From the NCBI RefSeq assembly GCF_012295615.1, contig NZ_CP051183.1, positions 2,135,001 through 2,199,000 on the forward strand: DNA of 64,000 bases, given 5' to 3'. The notes under the pieces were generated by a model that was not told where the DNA came from, ran no database searches, and saw nothing but the letters and a program-made list of their open reading frames with translations. How positions within the stretch are numbered: the stretch's first letter is position 1; every line of letters begins with the position of its first letter. Both the position numbers and the translations under genes were made by a program. This document shows positions 27,504 through 62,744 of this stretch, in pieces. Origin of the DNA: Bermanella marisrubri (GTDB lineage: Bacteria; Pseudomonadota; Gammaproteobacteria; Pseudomonadales; Oceanobacteraceae).

Positions 27504-27580
27504 TGGCGGACTGGACGAGACTCGAACTCGCGACCCCCGGCGTGACAGGCCGGTATTCTAACCAACTGAACTACCAGTCC
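27504..27580 (-). tRNA. tRNA-Asp (GTC), copy nearest operon end
   Basis: A 77-nt cloverleaf with encoded CCA. Acceptor stem GGACTGG/CCAGTCC, anticodon loop CTGTCAC (GTC), T-arm GCGAG-TTCGAGT-CTCGT. It is identical to the other two Asp copies. Confidence 0.97.
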
Positions 27581-27611
27581 ACTTTTTGGGATCCAACTTA
27601 TTAATTAAAGT

Positions 27612-27687
27612 TGGTGGGTGATGACAGGATCGAACTGCCGACCCCCTCCTTGTAAGGGAGGTGCTCTCCCAGCTGAGCTAATCACCC
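27612..27687 (-). tRNA. tRNA-Val (TAC)
   Basis: A 76-nt cloverleaf with encoded CCA: acceptor GGGTGAT/ATCACCC, anticodon loop CTTACAA (TAC), T-loop TTCGATC. It is part of the Val-Asp repeat array. Confidence 0.97.
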
Positions 27688-27713
27688 AAACTGTGCCTAT
27701 GATGAATTTAAAG

Positions 27714-27790
27714 TGGCGGACTGGACGAGACTCGAACTCGCGACCCCCGGCGTGACAGGCCGGTATTCTAACCAACTGAACTACCAGTCC
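27714..27790 (-). tRNA. tRNA-Asp (GTC), middle copy
   Basis: Same 77-nt sequence as the copy at 27504, including the CCA end and the GTC anticodon. Confidence 0.97.
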
Positions 27791-27811
27791 ACTTTAAAAC
27801 CAACTTAAAGT

Positions 27812-27887
27812 TGGTGGGTGATGACAGGATCGAACTGCCGACCCCCTCCTTGTAAGGGAGGTGCTCTCCCAGCTGAGCTAATCACCC
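27812..27887 (-). tRNA. tRNA-Val (TAC), middle copy
   Basis: Same 76-nt sequence as the copy at 27612, anticodon TAC, CCA encoded. Confidence 0.97.
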
Positions 27888-27937
27888 AAATGCATCATCA
27901 ATGCAAACCCGTTTTACATCCGGCGATGGGTTTAAAT

Positions 27938-28014
27938 TGGCGGACTGGACGAGACTCGAACTCGCGACCCCCGGCGTGACAGGCCGGTATTCTAACCAAC
28001 TGAACTACCAGTCC
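27938..28014 (-). tRNA. tRNA-Asp (GTC), first copy in the operon
   Basis: Same 77-nt sequence as the other Asp copies, anticodon GTC, CCA encoded. Confidence 0.97.
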
Positions 28015-28050
28015 ATTTAAACCAACGCTTGCACAAGCCCAAATAAAATT

Positions 28051-28126
28051 TGGTGGGTGATGACAGGATCGAACTGCCGACCCCCTCCTTGTAAGGGAGG
28101 TGCTCTCCCAGCTGAGCTAATCACCC
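28051..28126 (-). tRNA. tRNA-Val (TAC), promoter-proximal copy
   Basis: Same 76-nt sequence as the other Val copies, anticodon TAC, CCA encoded. It is first in the operon, 17 bp after the -10 element. Confidence 0.97.
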
Positions 28127-46798: not shown

Positions 46799-48715
46799 TC
46801 ACTGACCGCGGTTCTGGTTTTCGCTTTCTAACAACTTCGCGAAGTCTTCCAGACTCATGGTACCTAGGTCTTCACCTGAGCGGGTACGTACGGCAACAGC
46901 ATCCGAAGCCACTTCTTTGTCCCCTGTAACCAACAAATAAGGGACCTTTTGTAAAGTGTGCTCGCGGATTTTAAAGCCGATCTTCTCATTTCTCAAGTCC
47001 GAGTCCACTCTAAAGCCCTGTTTGGCGAGGGTTTGCTGCACTTTTTTCACATAATCGGCCTGATTATCGGTAATATTCATGATCATGGCCTGTGTTGGCG
47101 CCAACCAAGTTGGCAATGCGCCCGCATAATGCTCAATCAAAATACCGATAAAACGCTCCAAAGAGCCCAAAATCGCGCGGTGAATCATTACTGGTGTCTG
47201 GCGATCACCATTCTCATCTACGTATTGCGCCCCAAGACGACCCGGCATTGAGAAATCCAACTGAATCGTACCGCACTGCCAAGCACGATCTAAGCAATCA
47301 AACAGTGTAAATTCGATCTTAGGACCGTAAAACGCGCCTTCACCTTCTTGAATTTCATAGTCTAATTCGTTCGCTTTAAGTGCATCAGCCAAACCTTTCT
47401 CGGCTTTATCCCAAATTTCGTCGCTACCAATGCGCTTTTCAGGACGAGTAGACAGTTTAACGCTCAGATTCTGGTCGAAACCAAAGTCTTTATACACGTC
47501 AAAAACCATCTGAATACATTTAGTCACTTCTTCTAGAATCTGTTCTTCGGTACAGAAAACGTGCGCATCATCCTGAGTAAATGAACGAACACGCATCAAA
47601 CCGTGTAAAGATCCAGAGGGCTCGTTACGGTGAACAATACCAAATTCCGCCATGCGGTACGGCAAATCACGGTAACTCTTCAGGCCTTGATTGAAGATCT
47701 GTAAGTGGCCAGGGCAGTTCATTGGCTTAACCGCGTAGGTACGCTTTTCTGACTCAGTGGCAAAAATATTGTCTTGGTACTTATCCCAGTGACCGGATTT
47801 CTCCCACATGGAAACATCCATCACCATTGGTGCACGCACTTCTTCATATTGGTACTCCACCAACTTCTTGCGCATATAGTCTTCAAGAATGTTGTATATG
47901 GTCCAACCTTTAGAATGCCAGAACACCATACCTGGCGCTTCTTCTTGCCAATGGAACAGGTCTAGGGCTTTACCCAGTTTACGGTGATCACGTTTCTCTG
48001 CTTCTTCTAATCGCTGTAAGTAGGCCTTCAATGCCTTTTTGTCTGCCCATGCCGTACCGTAAATACGCTGCAACATTTTGTTGTCGCTATCGCCGCGCCA
48101 GTAAGCACCTGCCACCTTCATCAGTTTAAAGTTCTGACAGAACTTCATGTTCGGTACGTGAGGACCACGACACATGTCAATGTATTCTTCATGGTGATAT
48201 AACGCAGGCGTACTGTCTTTTGGAATATTCTCATCCAAAATTTCCATCTTATAGCTCTCGCCACGCTTCTCGAATGTGTCGCGAGCGGTTTGCCAAGATA
48301 CCACCTCTTTAACAACTGGATAGCTGGTTTTTGCCAGCTCATTCATGCGTTTTTCCAGCTGCTTTAATTCTTCTTCATTAATTGGAAAGTCTGCGTCTAC
48401 GTCGTAGTAAAAGCCATTGTCGATAACCGGACCGATGGCCATCTTGGTTTGTGGCCATAGCTGCTTGATGGCATGACCTAAAAGGTGAGCACAAGAGTGA
48501 CGCAGGATCTCAAGGCCTTCTTCATCCTTCGCTGTGATAATGCGTAACTGGGCGTCATGTTCGATTTTGTCGCAGGCATCGATAAGTTGACCATCGACTT
48601 CACCAGCAATGGTGGCTTTGGCTAAACCAGGGCCAATATCGTTGGCTACATCTAAAACGGATACGGCTTCATCAAAAGCACGTTGAGAGCCATCAGGCAG
48701 AGTAATCACAGGCAT
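46799..48715 (-). CDS. thrS: Threonyl-tRNA synthetase
   Basis: A 638-residue class II synthetase with TGS domain (residues 1-60), editing domain ([20 protein letters not shown]), catalytic core (zinc-binding Cys in PVNCPGH-like [10 protein letters not shown] and the class II motifs [15 protein letters not shown] and [19 protein letters not shown]) and anticodon-binding end ([14 protein letters not shown]). It is the first gene of the operon and has a structured leader with a tRNA-like hairpin. Confidence 0.98.
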
Positions 48716-48800
48716 GTTGTTTCTTCCTATCAGTGGTGAGGCCTACTAAGCCGCACATGGTTTTTGCCGTGCTTTGGGTATTGCTACCCGCCACCTGCTT

Positions 48801-48841
48801 ATGCAAGCGCAATAGTACTTACCAAGTACAGCCACTTGCAT
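48801..48841 (-). promoter_or_regulatory. Candidate ThrRS translational operator (tRNA-Thr anticodon mimic)
   Basis: On the minus strand, a 7-bp outer stem (ATGCAAG/CTTGCAT) and an internal loop lead to GTAC/GTAC closing a 7-nt loop TTGGTAA. Loop positions 34-36 read GGT, the anticodon of tRNA-Thr, with U at 33 and A at 37. A GGGTA-GCAA-TACCC hairpin lies 12 nt downstream. E. coli ThrRS represses thrS by binding such an anticodon-like arm; here it is about 86 nt before the start codon. Confidence 0.6.
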
Positions 48842-48983
48842 CGCCCAGTAGTGAGACACGACGATTTACTACAAATTTCAAAGGGCCAATATTAAAGCAG
48901 AAAATCTACGCCAGATAAACGGCCAAGACCCCATAAACATGGTGCTATACAACGAAAATCTTGAGGAATTACCAACACTTAGC

Positions 48984-49024: not shown

Positions 49025-49101
49025 AGTCGCGTAGCTCAGTTGGTTAGAGCACCACCTTGACATGGTGGGGGTCGTTGGTTCAAATCCAATCGCGACTACC
49101 A
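49025..49101 (+). tRNA. tRNA-Val (GAC)
   Basis: A 77-nt cloverleaf with CCA encoded: acceptor AGTCGCG/CGCGACT, anticodon stem CCACC/GGTGG around TTGACAT (GAC), T-loop TTCAAAT. Single gene, divergent from thrS. Confidence 0.96.
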
Positions 49102-51263: not shown

Positions 51264-53489
51264 TTAATCATCGTTAGTTTGCACTGTATCTTTATGAAAG
51301 TCTTTTCTATCTGTTTTTTCTATAATTTTAATCTGTGTCCCATCAGGGTTTTCACTCCATTCATTCTTACCAACAGGACCTAGCAAAGCCGTCTTATCAC
51401 TATCACCTTTATAACTTGTGATACTAGCTGCTTGACTCTGAGGAGGTAGAGCAAGGGTGTCTTGAATTTGATTTGGCTGCTTTAATGATCCATCACTATT
51501 TTTAAAATTACCCGTGGGTGCCAAATAACTCCCCTGAGGCCTTGTGGGATTATTATGCGCTCGAGAAATAACATCCTCTGGCTGACCAGAAGGAACTATT
51601 CCTTTTTTAACAATATCATCGTCATTCCATTCTGGGATATAACTATCGCCATATTGCTCACGCCCTAAATCATTAGCTCTTTTACCCGTAATAGCTCCTA
51701 CTTCTTGAAAACCCATTTCATTCTCAAATTCTTTTTGAATGCCCCTTTGGGTAATTTTCTGATTTAGCCTTTGATTATAATTTTCATTATTTTGACCTAT
51801 ATTTAAATCATTCGAGTGGCTAGCTTCAGGATTTTTTATTCCAGTATCAGTAGCAGAATTCTGCCCTATCATCTCATTATCTACAGAAATATCTGAGCTA
51901 TTAGGGTCTACACCCTGACGATCTTTCTCCCTTAGCGCCTGAACTACTGGATCCTGATCTAAAGCTGAATGACCAACCTCGTTATCCGAAATAGCCATGT
52001 CTGGTTTTGGTCCATGTGAAACATCAGCTTTATTGACCTTAGCGATTATAGCAGCGGGGATTGCTGCCTCACCTGCTACCGAAATCAATGACCGTAATGC
52101 TGATGGGTCCATTTCCGCGAGTCGATTCGGGTAGTCTTGGAGCTTTGTAAGAATAGCTGTGGCTATTTCTTGCTTATTCTCGTATGCACTTTCAATTGAA
52201 GAAAGGTCTCGCGCAATATTATCAAGTGCTTCTGCTTTAAGGTCTCCACCAAATAAACCTACAGCTCCAATTACATCGGTGGTTTTGTCCACGATAGTAA
52301 CGGCCGCATCCGTAACATTAATAACAATATCCCCTGCTGCTGCAGCCATAGATAATGCTGTGCCAACACCATCACCTTTGAGATTTGCACTGGCTTGTTG
52401 GCTTTTTTCTTGATGATCTCTAACAGCTTTACGAGCGTCTTTAACGAATTCAGGCAGTAACGCATCACCTTTGGTTTTATCTAAGCCTGAGTATTCAACA
52501 TTGTTTGCAATTATTAATGCGCTATCATTACCTACATGATTGTTGCTTGTAGCCAAGCCATCATTGTGGCCATTAATATCCAGCGCCATAGCAGTGTAAT
52601 CAACCAGTCCTTCTCCAATATTATGCGCATAGGTTTCACGGTCTTCTTTTGAGTATTGCTGGTTGCTGCCATCACGATCATCCATGGCGTGTGCCATTTC
52701 ATGACCTGCTGTTTCAACTAACTGCCCATTGTCATCTATGTACGAGTCGTTGATATAGGCATCGCCTGTTTCTTCTGAATAGAAGCCTTGGCGGGTACTG
52801 TTCTCATTCGCTGTGACTTTATTGTTATAGCCTTCGGTTTCGTAACCTAGTTCTTGCATTACGGTATGCGTGAGCTGGTTTAAAACGTGTTGTTTCTCTT
52901 CTGGGTTTAAATCAGAACTCTGAAGTTTCGCGGCTAATATTGGGTCTTTCGCAATTTCTAATTTAACGGCTTCATAGGTGTTGTTCTGCTTGCCTATTTC
53001 ACTGTTTAAATCCGTTATACCAATGCGCTCGGTTGTGACCATTCTTTCAACCGCTTCACGCAACATATCTGTTTTCATGAAGTCTTCTGAAATTTTGTCG
53101 CGCCCTTCCTCACTAGCTAAGCGATGATCAACCGTTACTTCCGCATCTAAGCCACCTAGCTCATGGTCTTTGGTGATTTCTTGGGCGTTATTGGTGTCGC
53201 GGTTTACATCAATATCGGTATCCGCAAGTGCTTTTCCGCCCACCTGTACATTGCCATTACCAATCGTGGCTTTGGTGGTTTGGCGTTTATCGTGACCTGA
53301 GTAGTTAGCTCCAACGGTGGTGGTGCTGGTACCTGTGTTGAGGCTAAAGCCCTTGTCGCTGGCGGTGTCGTGGTCTTGGATGTTTTCAACAGTTAGGCTG
53401 TTGGCTGTGCTGATATATGAAGCATGCACACTCATATTCGTGATGAGGCTTATCACTATCAAAAGAATATAAGTCAGCGTACGATGCAT
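51264..53489 (-). CDS. Stand-alone CdiA C-terminal-like toxin protein with signal peptide
   Basis: A 741-residue protein. A clear signal peptide (MHRTLTYILLIVISLI, cleavage near VHASYIS) leads into a segment almost identical to CdiA residues about 2213-2313 (LTVENIQDHDTASDKGFSLN). It then has a zincin-like motif AGHEMAHAMDD (HEMAH near residues 263-267) with a downstream GEGLVDY, a hydrophobic stretch near 400-430, and a C-terminal toxin-like region after about 590 that I cannot assign. AGGAT is eight bases before the ATG, so it looks translated. Normal orphan cdiA-CT modules lack such start signals. Confidence 0.72.
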   Translation of the reverse strand: MHRTLTYILLIVISLITNMSVHASYISTANSLTVENIQDHDTASDKGFSLNTGTSTTTVGANYSGHDKRQTTKATIGNGNVQVGGKALADTDIDVNRDTNNAQEITKDHELGGLDAEVTVDHRLASEEGRDKISEDFMKTDMLREAVERMVTTERIGITDLNSEIGKQNNTYEAVKLEIAKDPILAAKLQSSDLNPEEKQHVLNQLTHTVMQELGYETEGYNNKVTANENSTRQGFYSEETGDAYINDSYIDDNGQLVETAGHEMAHAMDDRDGSNQQYSKEDRETYAHNIGEGLVDYTAMALDINGHNDGLATSNNHVGNDSALIIANNVEYSGLDKTKGDALLPEFVKDARKAVRDHQEKSQQASANLKGDGVGTALSMAAAAGDIVINVTDAAVTIVDKTTDVIGAVGLFGGDLKAEALDNIARDLSSIESAYENKQEIATAILTKLQDYPNRLAEMDPSALRSLISVAGEAAIPAAIIAKVNKADVSHGPKPDMAISDNEVGHSALDQDPVVQALREKDRQGVDPNSSDISVDNEMIGQNSATDTGIKNPEASHSNDLNIGQNNENYNQRLNQKITQRGIQKEFENEMGFQEVGAITGKRANDLGREQYGDSYIPEWNDDDIVKKGIVPSGQPEDVISRAHNNPTRPQGSYLAPTGNFKNSDGSLKQPNQIQDTLALPPQSQAASITSYKGDSDKTALLGPVGKNEWSENPDGTQIKIIEKTDRKDFHKDTVQTNDD
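53101..53400 (-). repeat. Pre-toxin duplication, orphan copy
   Basis: About 300 bp of the orphan gene closely matches 55807-56107 in cdiA in the same orientation and reading frame, with mostly synonymous differences. Confidence 0.88.
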
Positions 53490-53617: not shown

Positions 53618-54052
53618 CTACATGTCGTCTTTGTCGCGGTCTAACAAAGGGAAATATTTAAAATATCGATCATCAACATCTCTAGAATCAAAGTCTTTTA
53701 ATCTTGGAAGAAGCTCTTCATTAAAATCCCCATGAATAATGGCCAAGTTTATCAGATCTGTCGCATACAAGGACAGGTACACCTTTTCACTTTTATTTAA
53801 TACTTTTGATTTATTAATTTTATCTAAAGCCAGCAGTGATAGTTGTTTGATTTTTTCAAAGTCAGACTTGGACAATAGAACCTGAGCCTCTAAAAGCAAG
53901 AAATTTATACTTTTGCTTTTAGAAAAGTACAGCGACTTATCTAAGTATTTTAAAGCCTTTTCTTTCATGCCCTTCGATGAACATATCATTGCTTCCTGCC
54001 AAAAATACTCAGCGGGAATTAATCTAAAAAACCTAAAAAATTTATTCAGCAC
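53618..54052 (-). CDS. cdiI: Candidate CdiI immunity protein
   Basis: A 144-residue, probably all-helical protein with TPR-like helices (AMICSSKGMKEKALKYLDKSLYFSK; IHGDFNEELLPRLKDFDSRD). It overlaps the 3' end of cdiA by 11 bp, the standard immunity position. Its base composition is lower in GC than neighbours. No family is recognised; the partner toxin is the last part of the CdiA upstream. Confidence 0.65.
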   Translation of the reverse strand: MLNKFFRFFRLIPAEYFWQEAMICSSKGMKEKALKYLDKSLYFSKSKSINFLLLEAQVLLSKSDFEKIKQLSLLALDKINKSKVLNKSEKVYLSLYATDLINLAIIHGDFNEELLPRLKDFDSRDVDDRYFKYFPLLDRDKDDM

Positions 54053-57000
54053 TATCTAGTCCTTCTAAAATATTTTTTATACCTGTTAATATTCTATCCC
54101 CAGCATCAAAACCAGCCGACTTTGGATCTCGTTTATATTCAGGTTCAGTCCTTTGCTCGGCTCTCTTCAAATCTTCATATAGTTTCAAGTCTTCAGCTTT
54201 GTTGTTCTTAGTATATGCACCAGTAATTTCTTGGGCAGAAAGTAGCTTACTTTCAACCAGTTCCTTTTTAGCTTGCAAATCTGTCTCTTGAGCAGTTGAA
54301 TCAGACGGATTCTTACCATCAAAATCATTTTCTGCATTATAACTGCCGTTTGTCCCTGCACCTATCTGAGTATCGACCGTCTGACCAGATAAATCTATAT
54401 TTTTCAACTTAAGAACAACTGGCAAAACTGGTGCTACTTCACCCGCCAATTCAATATTATTATTGGATACTGCAGATTCTCGATCACCCTGTAATAAATC
54501 TACGAATGCTCTATCCCCTGAGTAGCCTTCTCTAGGATCACTCAATACGCAATCAAGTCCTGCATCAACACAGCCACCAACACCATCGCGTATGACTTGA
54601 ACCATATCGTCCATAGTTCCTGGATAATCTTCAATTAAACCCTCCCCTATCGAGATTGCACCATTAACAATCCCATCTACGGTTTCACCAACCTGCTGCA
54701 TAGGTGTCAGCTCAACTGATAACTCGCCATTTTCAGTAGCATATTTACTCATATAGTTATCTTCGCCAGCAGCACCGTCTTCAATCATTCTGGCTTGATT
54801 AGCGTTTATATACTGATTTTCTTTGTCTGGAGGTGTCGCGATGAAAGCTCCAACCAAACCACCATTAACGTACGCATCCTTAATAGGAGGTATTTCAGCT
54901 GCAATCTCTTTTAACCCTTCTCTTGCTCGATCATTTTCTTGGATATGTGCTTGGTCGGCCCATTCACTATCGACCTGTAACAAGGCTTGTTGAGTTAGCT
55001 CCTGCTTGGCTTGGTCTAGTGAAATGTCATGTCTATCTGCATAAGTTTGTGCGTGATCAATAATGGCTTTTGCTTCTGACACATAAAGCTGCCTATGCTC
55101 AACTATTGCATTGCCTACTGTGTTGGCTTTTTGTGTACCTGCTTGTACCGCTTGGCTGTTCTTTAGGTTATTGGAGAAGTCGGCACCGCCAGTACTATCA
55201 AGGTTACCACCTGCTGCTTGGTTGATGCGGTCGCTGAATTGTTCACCAAAGGCGTTGGCTAAGCTTTCTTGTTGACTATCAGTGTTGGTTCCGAATAAGC
55301 CACCGGTTAGGCTGCTGTCTTTGCCTTGGAAGTCTTGGCTTTCCAGCACTTCGTGACCCAGTGTATTGGCCATATCGGTTTTGCTGGCACCATCTCCAGC
55401 GTCAACAAAAATATCCCCTGCGTTTGCGTTGTTTTTGTCTACAACAGTGCCGCCTTTTACATCAGTTAGCGCGTTATCACCTAACGAACCACTGGTGGTT
55501 TTTTCACCGTCGTATAGATCCACTTCTGATAGGTCTAAACCAAATTTCGCTTGCGCTAGCTGACCTAAGTCTTTAACCGCTTGCGCATACACTTCAGGGT
55601 CATCACTTTTTAGACCGGCTAACAGTTCAGCATTTTCGGGATTGCGTACTAAATCATTTTTGAGCTGTGTGGCTTGTGCATTGTTATGCAGAGTTTCGCC
55701 AAAGTTCAGCGCATTGAGATTGTCGTCTTCTATAAGCTTGGAGGTTGTACGCGCTATGTCTTGACCGTGTTCCGCTGTATCCTCAAAGTCATTGGCAATA
55801 TCTTGACGACCTTCCTCACTGGCCAACCTATGATCCACTGTTACTGTGGCGTCCAAGCCACCAAGCTCATGGTTCTTGGTGATTTCTTGGGCGTTGCTGG
55901 TGTCGCGGTTTACATCAATATCAGTTTCGGCTAGTTGTTCGCCGCCCACTGTAACGTTGCCATTACCTATAGTGGCTTTGGTGGTTTGACGTTTATCGTG
56001 ACCGGAATAGTTGGCACCTACGGTGGTGGTGCTGGCGCCTGTGTTTAGGCTAAAGCCTTTGTCACTTGAGGTGTCGTGGTCTTGGATGTTTTCAACAGTT
56101 AGGGTGTCCGTTACAAAGTTAAGGTTGCCGTTATCGGCTCCATTTTCATCTTGTGCTGCTATCAAGCCACCTCTTAGTGTGGTGTCTTTGGCTTTGATTG
56201 ATACATTGCCACCTGTGATGGAGCTTTGCTGGTCGACCCAAGCAGAGCTGGATTCTGATTGTTGTTGGTTGATACCACCTGAGGTTGGTGGTGCAACGCC
56301 ACCTAAGGACAGGTTTGCTCCTTGGGTTTGGCTATTGGAGGTGGAGGTGTTTTGTAGGCTTTCGACTAATAAGTTTTCAGTTGAAATGTCCACTACGCCT
56401 GCATCGACATTGGCGCCGCTTAGGGTGAGGTTTTCACTGTCGCTGCTTAAGCTGCCGGCTACGATTTGTGTATTGGTGTAATACTGGGACTCACTGCTGC
56501 TTTCGGTTTTATTGGCACTTAAGCTGCCACTTGGGCCGCCATTGGTGCTATAGCTAGCGCTTTCGGTATGGCTGCTGCTATCGCTGCTGGTTTGTGTGCT
56601 GTTTTCACCCGCAAGTAGATTGATATCCTCGGCGTCTAACTGTAATTCTCCGCCAACGGCGACATTTGAGCCTTTTACTTGGATTTCATCTTGGGCTTGC
56701 AGTGTTGCGTTGCCGCCTAGGTTTACATTAGAGCCATTCCACGTGCTACTGACTTCTGTGGACGAAGATTCATTGGTTTCTACGCTAGCATTGCCAGTAG
56801 CATAAAAACCGCCTGTACCGGTTGTGCCAGCGGCGGTGGCGCCAGCGGAGGCAACAGCTATGGTTGCATTGGTTAAGTTCGCTGTGGCGGCGGCAATATT
56901 GGTTTCAAAGTACTTCAGTTCGCTTGCTGGCATTTGGCCGTCTGCGATTTTTTGCTTAGCGTCGTCGTAAGCTTGCTTAGCATCGCGTACAGCATTTTTA

Positions 57001-60000
57001 GCCGAGTTCAATTCTTCGATCGCTTGTGCTGTATCAACATATGCGTTCTTTACACCCACGCTAACGGTTTTTATTTCTTCTTTCAGCGTTGTTGTGGTTT
57101 CAGTGGTATCTTGGCGCCCTGATACCACTATATCTTCTGCTTGAATGTCAGTATCACCTTGCACCGTCACATCACTGCTAACAATATTGACAGCTTTGTC
57201 GGTATTTATGTTGAGGTTACCGGCATTCAAACTAGAACCAGACCAAGTGGTCGATGTGGTCGCTTCCGTTGTACTGGTTTTGGTTTCACTCAGGTTGGCT
57301 ACTGTAATTTCATTTTCACCAACCGAAGGCGCTGATGAGGACACCGTGGTTGTACTTTCGGTTTTGGAATAAGAGCTGCTCTCTTTTGCTGCGTCCATGG
57401 TAAAGCTTTGAGCATCAATATTAGCCGTATCCTGCACTGTGGCATTGGAACCGATAACGGCTACATCACCAGCCACATCAACATTCAAGTTCTTAGCCTG
57501 TAAATTAGATGCTTGCTGTATGGTTTGCTGGCTGCGCTCACTACTGCTGCTACCGACTTCGATCTCGGCATCCACTGGAATCCCTGCGGTTGCAGCCACA
57601 GAGCTGACCATTAGGCTTACACCGCTGGCGATGTCTTTTAATATGCCGCTAAAACCAGAGGATTTTTCATTCCAGCTTTCATTTTTAAGTTCTTGTGTCG
57701 TAACCGTGACATTGCCAACTTGCTCCCCTTCTTGGTTAACAAACTGTCCATCTGGACTTAATTGGGCGCTACCGTCCTGTGACTGTGCAATCACATCGTC
57801 GCCGATGGTCATGGTTTCTTGGGCGCTTAGATCTGAGCCTTTAACCGTGACGTTACCAGCAGTATTAATATTTAGGTTAGTGCCTGCACTGATACTCGAA
57901 GCAATGGCTTCTTGAGTCTTTGCCCCTTTGTTTTGCGAGCTTTGTGTGAAGCTGCCTTTTTTGGTTTTAGTATATTGGTTGAAGCTGTCATTAACGGCTG
58001 CGCTTACGAGTAAATCACCGGTCGCGTCTAAATTTACATTTTCGCCAGCTTCAATTGTCGAGCCCACCAAGGCGGTATTGCCACCGGATTGAATTGTGAT
58101 ACTACCATCAGAGTTAATACTGCTTCCCAAGTGCGTCAGTGATTCGTTTATTTCGGTACTGGCTCTTCGAGTACTACCACCAAAACCGGAGCTCTTCGAG
58201 GTCTTGTCAACTCGACTAGTATTGAGTGCTGTTTCGGTAGCAAGTAAAACATTCCCCTCGGCGGATAGGTTAACGCCATCTTTGCCGCTAAATTGAGTCC
58301 CTTTCGATATAATGTCGTTTTTACTTGATAGTGTTAACACGCCATCAGATGTAAACGCAGAGGCAATTACTTCTTCACTGTGGCTTTGCGTATGCTCTGT
58401 ATCGCCACCGCCGTAGTTATAAAAGATGTCTTTATCTTCGGTATTCTTAACGGCGAGCAATTGAATGTCGTTGGCATCAATTTCAAGATTACCATCAGAT
58501 GCGACTTTGGCGCCTTCTGATTTAACGGTTCCTCCCGCTATCATCAACACGGTACCCGCACCAATTTCTGTCGTTTGATGCTGAGTTGAACTGACGTTAT
58601 AGAAGTTACCACTGATCGCTTCTTCAATGATTTTCGCGGTGGTCATTTCAATGTTATTGACCGCTTCAACTACCAAATCACCTTCTACATTCACGTCACT
58701 ACCGATAAACTTCACATCGTTTCCAGCCGTGATATTCAACTCTTGAGCGTTAATGGTTGCGGTATCACCGACTAAGCTTTGCTTAAACGTGCTGTTTGCG
58801 CCACTGAGATCGACTACCTCTACCTGTGTTTGGTTTATGAAATCACGACCCGCGTTAATGTTTATGCGTGCACTGTCGATTAACCCACTGGCATTGTGGA
58901 TGTCCCGTTGAGCAACGAGATCCATTTCATTTTTGGAGACTAGTTTGTTGGTGTTTTTAATATCGTTAGCAACCAGCTTCAGTTTGTCTTTAGCTTTTAT
59001 CACACCTGCATTTGCAATTTCATTGGTCGCCTCTAGGTCAACAGTGTCAGCAGCTATGAGAGCTCCATCCTCACGTAACGATAAGCCCATGGTATCGTTA
59101 AAATAGACTTGAGGAACAAGTGCTGTTTTTACTCCATCTTTTGTTTCGAATTGTTTTTCAACCATCCAAACGATGGGCTTATCTAAGGCCTCTATCTGTT
59201 CGAGTGTTAGTTCCACACCAATCGATAGGGTTAGGTTTTCTTTCGCAGTAAGAGCATTTTCCATTAGCGCAATATATTGATCCTGAATGCTTTGACTGTC
59301 ATCAACAAACTGAACACCCGTTAAATCTAATATCTGATCACGTACAAGGTCTTGCTCAAAATAGCCATCACCTAAACGAACAGCATCATTTTCGTTGATG
59401 TCTACACCCATGCGTTCAAGCATATAATCAGATGAGATGAAGTTTTGGTATTCGGTAAAGTTTGGATTGGTTTCGATTAGGTAACCGTGATTACCGTTAT
59501 CCACTTGAGAAAATAATGCGCCATAAGAAAGATCATCTAGATTTGAACCAGCGTTTATTATTTCTGATGTAATAATGTCAGTTGATTTATCAGAAACGTC
59601 CTTAGGTGCGTTTATAACGACACTATCGCTCTCGTTTGCTTTATCTGAGGTACCATTTGATATTGTTTCAGCTTTAATGCTCAACTTTTTGTTTGCTGAG
59701 ATAGTGGACACGACTTTTTTAAAATCTGAATTATTACTACTATCTACGACCTTTGGTGGATGACGTATATCTCTTGGGTTTGAGGGTGCTCGATCTCGTC
59801 CTTTTAGGCAGCGTTCAGGCCAGTTACACTTACTGAGAATTACAAAAGTATATTTTCCAGTTTTTTTATCAATTTGCTTTTCTTCAAATTCAAAATTGAT
59901 CACATCAAAAGATGCAGCATCATTATTTCCTAACGCACTTATTGTGGAATATTCATTTCTTATGGCTCCTTTAATATTTAAATCAATATTATCTCCGGAC

Positions 60001-62744
60001 AATATAAAGGACTCCTGAGACATTTCTTCAATGGTAAATACCTCTCTAGTTGTTATAGAGTTCTCAACCATTTTATGAATATAGCCTCCAGGCAATCGAT
60101 CCTTTTCTATTAAGTCATAAATATAATTCGGAAAATAATCTTCAAGGTCCGTAGCTATCACATAATTTGTTCTGCGATCTATGTCATAATCATCTACATC
60201 TGTAATAAAGACAGTTCTTTTATTAGTTAGCTCACCTGCAGTAATGAATAAGGACCCACTGGTTTCAATAATAGATGACTCATTCAGCAATGTACCATCA
60301 ACATCAAAACCTGCGGATCCAAAACTATACAGCACCCCACCGTTTCTGTTTCTTAAGTCCCCTAATGTGGTTTTCATTCTTAAGTTTTCATGGGCTAGTA
60401 CCAGTGCCTTGTCACCATCATTGTCAATCGTCTTAGCGGTTATATCGAGTTTGTTTCCACCCACAAAGCCATAGTTATCCCAATCAGTGGAATTAAATGT
60501 CGCTTCTCCATTGACCGCCTTTACGACACCGGTACTCTCGTTATGAAATAGGCCTTGATCTTGATTAAAGTTACCATTGGATTGAATAGCGGCTACTTTG
60601 TTGTAAAGACTACCCGTTACGCTCATATCACCGGATGAAACAAGATAGCCTTTTTCATTGTGGTGAGTATTCTTCTGGTTATAAATTCGCTCTGCATCTA
60701 TGCTTAAGGCTCCTAGAGTCTCTACAATACCGGAGTCATTATAAAAATATCCTTGACTGCTAAGTGAGGCGACTCCTTCACTGAAAATGAGCGCGCCCAT
60801 TTTGTTATACCAGGTCTGGATTGCGGCGATTGAAAGCGATTCTTTTGCTTGAATTTGAGCATCGACACCCGAGTTCGTTATAGCGTCAGTGGTGATATCA
60901 ACTTGTGCACCTGCAATTAAACCCGTATTTGAAATAGCACCACTATTATCCATATCAAGCAAACCATTTTCGGTGGCGATAACAGAGCCTAAAGAATTGT
61001 TGATTTGGTTCGTTGAAAGCGTCGCATTGCCAACCACTTGCAATGCAGCAAAGTTATTGTTCGAATCAGCACTGTAGTTATTGAAAGCTTGACCAACAAA
61101 ATCAAAATCCCCATCAGCCGCCAGAATCGCGTTACTATTATTTACGTTATTTTGAGTTGTTAAAGATGTATTGCCAGCACTATAAATAAGAGCGCCTTCG
61201 GTATTATTAATATCTGATTCTACGTCGATACTAATACTACTGCCTGCTTGTATCTTTGCTTGGCGACCGTGATTACGGAACTGTTGCGAAGCAATTTGAA
61301 TACTATCGCCTGCGATTAATGCAGTATTTTCTAATTCAGTGGTTTGAATATTAAGCTGCCCTTCTCTTGCAACGATCGTTGGTAGAGCATCAGTGCTGCC
61401 TGCGTTGTCTTGCCCGTTAATGACTGCATTTGAGGTGAGGTTAATATTATTACTGGCCTCTATGCTATTTCGATTAACAATTGATTTGTCGTTTGCGTCA
61501 AGATTGACAGTATCACCTGCATAAATGACACCCTCATTCACAATATCGTCATTGGTTACATCAATGCTTAGCTCATTTTTGGCGTGTAATTTTGCCTGAT
61601 TACCTGCATTGGAAAACAAAGCGGTCGTCACATCAGTATTATTACCTTGAACAAGGCCTGTGTTTGCAAAGCTCTGTGTGTCTATCGTTAGGTTTTGATC
61701 AGAGGTAATTGCACCACTATTTTCTAGACGCTCTGATAACGAGATCGCACTACCACCGTCGGCTGATATCAGCTTACCCTTCTCATTGTTTATTAAGCTT
61801 TGAGCGGTAAAATCAACTTGGTTTGCGGCAATGGTTCCTGAGTTTGTGATATTCCCGCTTTGATCTAAGGTAAAGTTCGAAGTGGCAATAACATCACCAC
61901 CCAAGTTCACCCCTAAACCCTGTTCCGTACCAACCAGATGAATTCTATTAGCGTACATGCCGCCGATGGCAGCTACATCGAGTGAGAATTCAGGAGTGCT
62001 TGATTCATCCGAAGTAGCTAAGGTGTTTTTTTCGATCTGTTCTAAATCGGTAGATATCGTGTTTTGCCCAGTGACGAGATTAAGTTGATTCGCCCAGAGA
62101 TCACCATTGATATCAATACTACGCGCCAATATGTCTATCTGCTCAACATTACTGCCGTTAAAACCTAGCTCTCCAATATCAACTTTTCCCTTTGAGACAT
62201 CAAAGCCGCTAAACTGAGCGCCATCAAACATTAATTGGCCCGTTGTTAATGTCGCACGCGGTGTGTTGATAAATCCGCAACCGTTACACGTGATACCATT
62301 TTGGTTTGCGATAACAACTTCTGCTTGCTGACCTGCGACTTCGGTATACCCCAATAGCTGCGATGGATTGGCGCCGATAACTTCATTGAGGATAATGCTT
62401 GCCTGCTGCCCCTCTAAACGGCTATTTCCATCGATATAGCCTGCTAGTTGCGTTGCTACTATGTCTGGAGAGTTGTTTAAGATTAAACCTTCTTCACCAA
62501 CGTTAAACTGATTGTATTCATTGCGAGACACGCCTCCGTCAGAGGGCTTATTAATATTGACAACAGGGATACCGTTTGCCGATTCTTCAAGCGCTACCCC
62601 CTTGCCGTTTATCGCTGATACGACACCTTGTGCAACAACAAGATTGGGCAGTGATGCATAAACAATAAGGGTGAATAGCGCTAACGGCTTTTTATAGGCA
62701 CGAAACAGAGAGAGAACAGGTTTTGTCGAAGATACAGCAGGCAT
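54042..62744 (-). CDS. cdiA: CdiA-like two-partner secretion effector, 2900 residues
   Basis: A giant exoprotein. Signal peptide ends near LVVAQG (about residue 38); the TPS secretion domain follows (residues about 40-300, with GITCNGCGFINTPRATLTTG near 145-165). Filament repeats fill about 300-2150 (many N-A-G-x-L/DINT-type strands and a Ser/Thr-rich part from about 1600). The pre-toxin part about 2210-2500 includes a degenerate HExxH (LGHEVLES near 2460). The last 120 residues (after PVLPVVLKLKNID) form a short unassigned toxin. No VENN motif is seen. Followed by cdiI with 11-bp overlap. Confidence 0.9.
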   Translation of the reverse strand: MPAVSSTKPVLSLFRAYKKPLALFTLIVYASLPNLVVAQGVVSAINGKGVALEESANGIPVVNINKPSDGGVSRNEYNQFNVGEEGLILNNSPDIVATQLAGYIDGNSRLEGQQASIILNEVIGANPSQLLGYTEVAGQQAEVVIANQNGITCNGCGFINTPRATLTTGQLMFDGAQFSGFDVSKGKVDIGELGFNGSNVEQIDILARSIDINGDLWANQLNLVTGQNTISTDLEQIEKNTLATSDESSTPEFSLDVAAIGGMYANRIHLVGTEQGLGVNLGGDVIATSNFTLDQSGNITNSGTIAANQVDFTAQSLINNEKGKLISADGGSAISLSERLENSGAITSDQNLTIDTQSFANTGLVQGNNTDVTTALFSNAGNQAKLHAKNELSIDVTNDDIVNEGVIYAGDTVNLDANDKSIVNRNSIEASNNINLTSNAVINGQDNAGSTDALPTIVAREGQLNIQTTELENTALIAGDSIQIASQQFRNHGRQAKIQAGSSISIDVESDINNTEGALIYSAGNTSLTTQNNVNNSNAILAADGDFDFVGQAFNNYSADSNNNFAALQVVGNATLSTNQINNSLGSVIATENGLLDMDNSGAISNTGLIAGAQVDITTDAITNSGVDAQIQAKESLSIAAIQTWYNKMGALIFSEGVASLSSQGYFYNDSGIVETLGALSIDAERIYNQKNTHHNEKGYLVSSGDMSVTGSLYNKVAAIQSNGNFNQDQGLFHNESTGVVKAVNGEATFNSTDWDNYGFVGGNKLDITAKTIDNDGDKALVLAHENLRMKTTLGDLRNRNGGVLYSFGSAGFDVDGTLLNESSIIETSGSLFITAGELTNKRTVFITDVDDYDIDRRTNYVIATDLEDYFPNYIYDLIEKDRLPGGYIHKMVENSITTREVFTIEEMSQESFILSGDNIDLNIKGAIRNEYSTISALGNNDAASFDVINFEFEEKQIDKKTGKYTFVILSKCNWPERCLKGRDRAPSNPRDIRHPPKVVDSSNNSDFKKVVSTISANKKLSIKAETISNGTSDKANESDSVVINAPKDVSDKSTDIITSEIINAGSNLDDLSYGALFSQVDNGNHGYLIETNPNFTEYQNFISSDYMLERMGVDINENDAVRLGDGYFEQDLVRDQILDLTGVQFVDDSQSIQDQYIALMENALTAKENLTLSIGVELTLEQIEALDKPIVWMVEKQFETKDGVKTALVPQVYFNDTMGLSLREDGALIAADTVDLEATNEIANAGVIKAKDKLKLVANDIKNTNKLVSKNEMDLVAQRDIHNASGLIDSARININAGRDFINQTQVEVVDLSGANSTFKQSLVGDTATINAQELNITAGNDVKFIGSDVNVEGDLVVEAVNNIEMTTAKIIEEAISGNFYNVSSTQHQTTEIGAGTVLMIAGGTVKSEGAKVASDGNLEIDANDIQLLAVKNTEDKDIFYNYGGGDTEHTQSHSEEVIASAFTSDGVLTLSSKNDIISKGTQFSGKDGVNLSAEGNVLLATETALNTSRVDKTSKSSGFGGSTRRASTEINESLTHLGSSINSDGSITIQSGGNTALVGSTIEAGENVNLDATGDLLVSAAVNDSFNQYTKTKKGSFTQSSQNKGAKTQEAIASSISAGTNLNINTAGNVTVKGSDLSAQETMTIGDDVIAQSQDGSAQLSPDGQFVNQEGEQVGNVTVTTQELKNESWNEKSSGFSGILKDIASGVSLMVSSVAATAGIPVDAEIEVGSSSSERSQQTIQQASNLQAKNLNVDVAGDVAVIGSNATVQDTANIDAQSFTMDAAKESSSYSKTESTTTVSSSAPSVGENEITVANLSETKTSTTEATTSTTWSGSSLNAGNLNINTDKAVNIVSSDVTVQGDTDIQAEDIVVSGRQDTTETTTTLKEEIKTVSVGVKNAYVDTAQAIEELNSAKNAVRDAKQAYDDAKQKIADGQMPASELKYFETNIAAATANLTNATIAVASAGATAAGTTGTGGFYATGNASVETNESSSTEVSSTWNGSNVNLGGNATLQAQDEIQVKGSNVAVGGELQLDAEDINLLAGENSTQTSSDSSSHTESASYSTNGGPSGSLSANKTESSSESQYYTNTQIVAGSLSSDSENLTLSGANVDAGVVDISTENLLVESLQNTSTSNSQTQGANLSLGGVAPPTSGGINQQQSESSSAWVDQQSSITGGNVSIKAKDTTLRGGLIAAQDENGADNGNLNFVTDTLTVENIQDHDTSSDKGFSLNTGASTTTVGANYSGHDKRQTTKATIGNGNVTVGGEQLAETDIDVNRDTSNAQEITKNHELGGLDATVTVDHRLASEEGRQDIANDFEDTAEHGQDIARTTSKLIEDDNLNALNFGETLHNNAQATQLKNDLVRNPENAELLAGLKSDDPEVYAQAVKDLGQLAQAKFGLDLSEVDLYDGEKTTSGSLGDNALTDVKGGTVVDKNNANAGDIFVDAGDGASKTDMANTLGHEVLESQDFQGKDSSLTGGLFGTNTDSQQESLANAFGEQFSDRINQAAGGNLDSTGGADFSNNLKNSQAVQAGTQKANTVGNAIVEHRQLYVSEAKAIIDHAQTYADRHDISLDQAKQELTQQALLQVDSEWADQAHIQENDRAREGLKEIAAEIPPIKDAYVNGGLVGAFIATPPDKENQYINANQARMIEDGAAGEDNYMSKYATENGELSVELTPMQQVGETVDGIVNGAISIGEGLIEDYPGTMDDMVQVIRDGVGGCVDAGLDCVLSDPREGYSGDRAFVDLLQGDRESAVSNNNIELAGEVAPVLPVVLKLKNIDLSGQTVDTQIGAGTNGSYNAENDFDGKNPSDSTAQETDLQAKKELVESKLLSAQEITGAYTKNNKAEDLKLYEDLKRAEQRTEPEYKRDPKSAGFDAGDRILTGIKNILEGLDSAE
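55807..56107 (-). repeat. Pre-toxin duplication, CdiA copy
   Basis: Counterpart of 53101-53400 in the orphan gene, same strand and frame. The shared segment begins with the LTVENIQDHDT stretch. Confidence 0.88.

What the first reader, a model, noticed from the sequence alone, without database searches (positions are those of the whole stretch)
48801..48841. thrS leader hairpin with a tRNA-Thr anticodon loop
The loop TTGGTAA has U33, GGU at 34-36 and A37, as in tRNA-Thr(GGU), on a stem closed by GTAC/GTAC and a 7-bp outer helix. E. coli uses CGU in its operator; here a different Thr anticodon would be mimicked. It sits farther from the start than in E. coli, so the mode of repression could differ.
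Basis: partly seen in the sequence, partly recalled or inferred. Interest (0 to 1): 0.65.

Follow-up and report, generated by a model that had tools for sequence, protein, structure and literature searches.

The report
Two-armed thrS translational operator
The hairpin copies the anticodon loop of threonine tRNA and is the upstream half of a two-hairpin switch in the threonyl-tRNA synthetase mRNA; the same kind of self-repression switch is known from E. coli, so this is an ordinary new example, with a lineage-specific stem.

Summary
On the minus strand, 86-126 nt upstream of thrS, the hairpin 48801-48841 has a 9-bp outer helix, a 3x5 internal loop, a GUAC/GUAC stem and a loop UUGGUAA. That loop is letter for letter the anticodon loop of this genome's own tRNA-Thr(GGU). 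It is unique in the 64-kb window, rare in shuffles, and present in all seven same-genus leaders read, with covariation in the stem.

The interpretation needs correcting. It aligns without gaps to domain 2 of the E. coli thrS operator and covaries strongly. G35-U36 is present in 75 of 75 distinct sequences, while base 34 is free. The finding's hairpin is therefore the counterpart of E. coli domain 4, at much the same distance (-126..-86 versus -117..-74). A new mode of repression is not implied, and "GGU" rather than "CGU" carries little meaning.

Best reading: a classical autogenous ThrRS operator, and so a new member of a known kind. Modest extras: domain 4 here is an elaborated arm found only in this genus, related genera in the same family have one arm only, and two order-level relatives have two or three domain-2-like arms.

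The parts
46799..48715 (-). thrS coding sequence, 638 aa ThrRS, 72% identical to E. coli ThrS over 636 residues
   Evidence: single full-length copy in the genome
48723..48728 (-). Shine-Dalgarno-like AGGAAG, 7 nt before the ATG at 48715
   Evidence: sequence
48731..48760 (-).
48761..48788 (-). Linker between the arms (domain 3 position); not U-rich; holds most of a small hairpin GGGUA-GCAA-UACCC, 48776-48789
48801..48841 (-). The finding: domain-4-type anticodon-arm mimic; outer helix 48833-48841 with 48801-48809, inner GUAC stem 48826-48829 with 48815-48818, loop UUGGUAA 48819-48825 (GGU at 48821-48823)
48789..48853 (-). Extended domain-4 arm conserved in the genus: covarying 6-bp helix 48847-48852 with 48790-48795, and an invariant internal-loop motif UGGGCG (48847-48842) opposite UAAGCA (48800-48795)
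48766..48862 (-). Span closed by a predicted basal helix 48856-48862 with 48766-48772; counterparts predicted in most genus members
   Evidence: prediction only

Best explanation
The thrS mRNA of this gammaproteobacterium carries a classical ThrRS translational operator made of two tRNA-Thr anticodon-arm mimics. One is a domain-2-type arm (48731-48760) right before the Shine-Dalgarno sequence. The other is a domain-4-type arm (48801-48841, the finding), about 40 nt further upstream. Surplus dimeric ThrRS would bind both loops through G35-U36, one per anticodon-binding site, and keep the 30S subunit off the start site. Uncharged tRNA-Thr would compete for the enzyme and relieve repression. Shown here: both arms, their conservation and covariation, G35-U36 invariance in the domain-2 arm, and the identity of the domain-4 loop to the own tRNA-Thr(GGU) loop. 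Inferred from E. coli: ThrRS binding, symmetry and competition with the ribosome.
For: The domain-4 loop is identical to the own tRNA-Thr(GGU) anticodon loop, and the nine bases CUUGGUAAG are shared. The arm is present in all seven same-genus leaders with readable upstream sequence, six of them distinct: 7 pairs with changes on both sides, 96% of cells paired, 0/500 shuffles reach the covariation score. The domain-2 arm aligns gaplessly to E. coli K-12 thrS. On 59 distinct arms 96.4% of cells pair, 6 of 9 pairs have changes on both sides, and the covariation score is 0.395 against 0.184 shuffled, 0/500. G35-U36 is in 75/75 distinct arms with base 34 free (G34 C22 A13 U6). A covariance model of it finds thrS leaders: 111 of 274 class genomes have a hit, and all of the best 30 lie just before a thrS gene. 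The own genome has one strong hit. ThrS is 72% identical to E. coli's with its N-terminal region intact. E. coli thrS has two anticodon-arm mimics bound by ThrRS (PMC7373986; PMC9976931; PMC3858243).
Against: No binding, probing or expression data. Within the genus the domain-4 loop GGU never varies, so it gives no covariation of its own. The linker is not the U-rich single strand described for E. coli. The window's domain-2 stem has a C.U mismatch. The folding z-score of the leader is weak. The extended domain-4 model finds nothing outside the genus in 195 order genomes sampled, so homology with E. coli domain 4, as opposed to analogy, is not shown.
Confidence: 0.88

Rival explanations
1. Only the domain-2 arm is a ThrRS site; the upstream hairpin has another role (mRNA stability, S1 or ribosome standby, 5'-end protection) and its anticodon-like loop is coincidence.
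For: The domain-2 arm is nearly universal in the leaders read, whereas same-family genera have only that arm, with a promoter-like TTTACA-N16..18-TANA[GC]T ending 13-23 nt before it in 19 of 25 leaders (shuffle rate 0.0004), so one arm apparently suffices there. The upstream arm has conserved internal-loop features with no tRNA counterpart.
Against: The loop equals the own tRNA-Thr(GGU) loop and stays invariant in the genus while helices around it vary. In other lineages upstream arms again carry N-G-U (UGU in E. coli and Shewanella; CGU in Pseudoalteromonas; CGU, UGU and AGU in Rheinheimera relatives). GU is the commonest 35-36 pair in hairpins of this zone: 16 of 89 dissimilar leaders against a mean of 3.8 for other pairs, stem of at least 6.
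Confidence: 0.08
2. Transcription attenuation: a T-box-like or leader-peptide system or an intrinsic terminator senses threonine.
For: It is a structured leader of an aminoacyl-tRNA synthetase gene, as in T-box systems.
Against: No Rfam match, T-box included, at E up to 10; no terminator-like site in the leader; no Thr-rich small ORF in the leader.
Confidence: 0.02
3. Chance hairpin without function.
For: Folding z-scores of the leader are weak; shuffled leaders give a comparable hairpin in about 0.5% of trials.
Against: Conserved in all seven genus leaders read, with compensatory changes.
Confidence: 0.02

Closest known systems
E. coli thrS translational operator (domains 2 and 4, bound by ThrRS)
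   Same: thrS leader; anticodon-like arm directly before the SD with identical layout (gapless 30-nt alignment, CACCACUG 3' flank); a second anticodon-like arm about 40 nt further upstream with outer helix, internal loop, short inner stem and an N-G-U loop; ThrRS 72% identical
   Different: Domain-2 loop AGU instead of CGU; domain-4 loop GGU (7 nt) instead of UGU (8 nt as read from the K-12 sequence); domain-4 arm longer, with an invariant UGGGCG/UAAGCA internal-loop motif and a basal helix; linker not U-rich
Yeast AspRS mRNA anticodon mimic
   Same: Aminoacyl-tRNA synthetase represses its own mRNA through an anticodon-arm mimic (PMC7373986)
   Different: Eukaryotic, Asp, different RNA and protein parts; analogy only
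T-box leaders of aminoacyl-tRNA synthetase genes
   Same: Synthetase gene leader that reads tRNA status
   Different: T-box RNA binds the tRNA; here the RNA imitates it. No T-box match

Membership tests
thrS translational operator (E. coli type) | Located in the 5' leader of thrS, with SD and AUG just downstream | tested here: met
thrS translational operator (E. coli type) | Domain-2 anticodon-arm mimic with G35-U36 directly 5' of the SD | tested here: met
   48731-48760
thrS translational operator (E. coli type) | Second anticodon-arm mimic (domain 4) upstream | tested here: met
   48801-48841
thrS translational operator (E. coli type) | Threonine identity bases G35-U36 in both anticodon-like loops (base 34, CGU in E. 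coli domain 2, is not treated as defining) | tested here: met
   AGU and GGU here, so the E. coli CGU itself is not matched; base 34 varies freely in 75 distinct domain-2 arms and among upstream arms, whereas the G and U are the conserved identity bases (PMC7373986)
thrS translational operator (E. coli type) | Unstructured, U-rich linker between the arms (second half of the split ribosome-binding site) | tested here: inconclusive
   Linker 48761-48788 is about 28 nt, not U-rich, and overlaps a small predicted hairpin; its length varies in the genus
thrS translational operator (E. coli type) | ThrRS with the N-terminal region needed for repression | tested here: met
   Full-length 638-aa protein aligned from residue 1 with E. 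coli ThrS
thrS translational operator (E. coli type) | ThrRS binds both arms and blocks 30S binding; tRNA-Thr competes | not testable with these tools
   Needs binding, toeprint and reporter assays
T-box leader | T-box and specifier-loop covariance model match, with terminator/antiterminator | tested here: not met
   No Rfam hit at E up to 10; no terminator-like site

The most novel reading that the evidence does not exclude
The thrS operator is modular in evolution: one near-universal G35-U36 arm before the SD, to which lineages add none, one or two further arms of unrelated stem sequence. In this genus the added arm has gained a rigid extension with an invariant UGGGCG/UAAGCA internal-loop motif that may position it on the ThrRS dimer or contact something else.
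Probability: 0.3. Interest if true: 0.4.

Novelty: new member of a known kind. Interest (0 to 1): 0.25.

Why it matters
It extends a textbook case of RNA mimicry of tRNA, studied in E. coli, across Gammaproteobacteria. Neither this leader nor E. coli's own gives an Rfam match at E up to 10, so annotation pipelines built on Rfam will not see it. The comparison shows what is kept (G35-U36 in an arm before the SD) and what is not (base 34, number of arms, upstream stem). Natural one-, two- and three-arm leaders would allow a direct test of whether symmetrical two-arm binding to the ThrRS dimer is needed for repression.

Tried and rejected
Rfam searches of the window leader and of the E. coli leader: no match. 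T-box, terminator and leader-peptide readings: rejected. Folding energy as evidence: weak. Domain-4 covariance model in 195 order genomes: found only the window's own locus, so no sequence-level homologue outside the genus was seen; that sample used strict filters and showed no other genus member among the listed genomes. Two weak own-genome hits of the domain-2 model (L157, L158) show no start codon right after them and look like matches inside coding sequence; treated as chance. A simple scan for upstream arms with 7-nt loops and 5-bp stems gave only mild enrichment of GU (16 leaders against 10 for the next pair); a looser scan was also mild; the scan restricted to 100 nt and 6-bp stems was clearer.

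Full report
WHAT IS THERE. thrS occupies 46799-48715 on the minus strand and encodes a 638-aa ThrRS that is 72% identical to E. coli ThrS over 636 residues. It is the only full-length copy in the genome. The finding lies in its leader. Read on the minus strand, 48841-48801 is AUGCAAGUG GCU GUAC UUGGUAA GUAC UAUUG CGCUUGCAU: a 9-bp outer helix, a 3x5 internal loop, a 4-bp inner stem and a 7-nt loop.

IS IT MORE THAN CHANCE. The exact loop in this architecture occurs once in the 64-kb window on both strands. Shuffled leaders give a comparable U33-N-G-U hairpin in 14 of 3000 trials, or 2 of 3000 if the outer helix must reach 9 bp. Folding energy alone is not striking. Comparison is what decides. 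All seven same-genus leaders with readable upstream sequence have the arm, and six of those are distinct. Loop UUGGUA(A/G) and the GUAC stem never change otherwise, while the outer helices show 7 pairs with changes on both sides, 96% of cells paired, and no shuffle of 500 reaching the covariation score. A covariance model of this 65-nt arm hits the window at 85.7 bits and nothing else in 195 sampled genomes of the order.

THE tRNA IT COPIES. The genome has a tRNA-Thr(GGU) with anticodon arm CAUCCUUGGUAAGGAUG and a tRNA-Thr(UGU) with arm ACUGACUUGUAAUCAGU. The hairpin's loop UUGGUAA and its closing C-G pair are identical to the former.

Directly before the Shine-Dalgarno sequence is a second arm, 48760-48731: CCAUGUGCGGCUUAGUAGGCCUCACCACUG. 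Its 7-nt loop UUAGUAG has U33, A34-G35-U36, A37. It aligns without a gap to the E. coli K-12 leader, GUAUGUGAUCUUUCGUGUGGGUCACCACUG, at the place of operator domain 2. Nearly every gammaproteobacterial thrS leader read has it. In 75 distinct sequences G35 and U36 are present in all; base 34 is G 34, C 22, A 13, U 6; CCACUG follows in all, partly because that flank was used to pick them out. Six of nine pairs show changes on both sides and the covariation score is about twice the shuffled mean, 0/500. A model of it gives hits in 111 of 274 sampled class genomes under strict filters, and the best 30 all lie just before a thrS gene.

SO WHAT IS THE FINDING. E. coli's thrS operator has two anticodon-arm mimics, one next to the SD and one further upstream, both bound by ThrRS (PMC9976931; PMC7373986; PMC3858243). 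In K-12 the upstream arm is AUUGCGAACC..UAGC-AUUUGUUG-GCUA..GGUUUCGCAAU at -117 to -74; the finding lies at -126 to -86. It has the same layout: outer helix, internal loop, short inner stem, N-G-U loop. It is therefore the domain-4 counterpart. One review says both E. coli loops hold CGU; the K-12 sequence as read here shows UGU in the upstream one.

MECHANISM. Most likely free ThrRS dimer binds both loops through G35 and U36, blocks the 30S subunit, and is titrated away by uncharged tRNA-Thr. The RNA anatomy is shown here; the protein and ribosome steps are inferred from E. coli.

COMPARATIVE EXTRAS. Second arms occur elsewhere with other stems and other base-34 letters: CGU in Pseudoalteromonas, CGU, UGU and AGU in Rheinheimera relatives, GGU in Idiomarina, UGU in Shewanella. 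In hairpins upstream of domain 2, GU is the most frequent pair at 35-36: 16 of 89 dissimilar leaders against a mean of 3.8 for other pairs, the next highest being 9. This enrichment is real but not overwhelming, and individual cases outside the clear ones may be chance. In other genera of the window's own family, 19 of 25 leaders have a promoter-like TTTACA-N16..18-TANA[GC]T ending 13-23 nt before domain 2, so their transcripts probably hold one arm only. Two order-level relatives have two (L131) or three (L123) domain-2-like arms.

VERDICT. New member of a known kind; interest low to moderate because of the comparative picture.

Noticed in passing
L131 (G043:C1:549201-549680): thrS leader with two tandem domain-2-type arms directly before the start codon (loops UUCGUUU and AACGUAG).
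   Followed up: partly
L123 (G041:C83:36584-37063, reverse strand): thrS leader with three anticodon-like arms (GGU each) and a short ORF MPLTAKN between the last arm and the assigned start.
   Followed up: partly
L118, L132, L134: Order-level thrS upstream regions with no recognisable domain-2 arm; for L132 and L134 the start codon assignment is uncertain.
   Followed up: no
window 49025-49101: tRNA-Val(GAC) lies just upstream of thrS but on the opposite strand; in L006, L007, L033 and several order-level relatives it is on the same strand, so an inversion seems to have occurred within the genus.
   Followed up: partly
window 51264-53489 (-): 741-aa ORF with a signal-peptide-like start followed by a stretch nearly identical to part of the 2900-aa haemagglutinin/CdiA-like protein encoded at 54042-62744; looks like a displaced C-terminal module.
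   Followed up: no
window 27504-28126 (-): Three tandem repeats of a tRNA-Val(UAC)/tRNA-Asp(GUC) pair.
   Followed up: no
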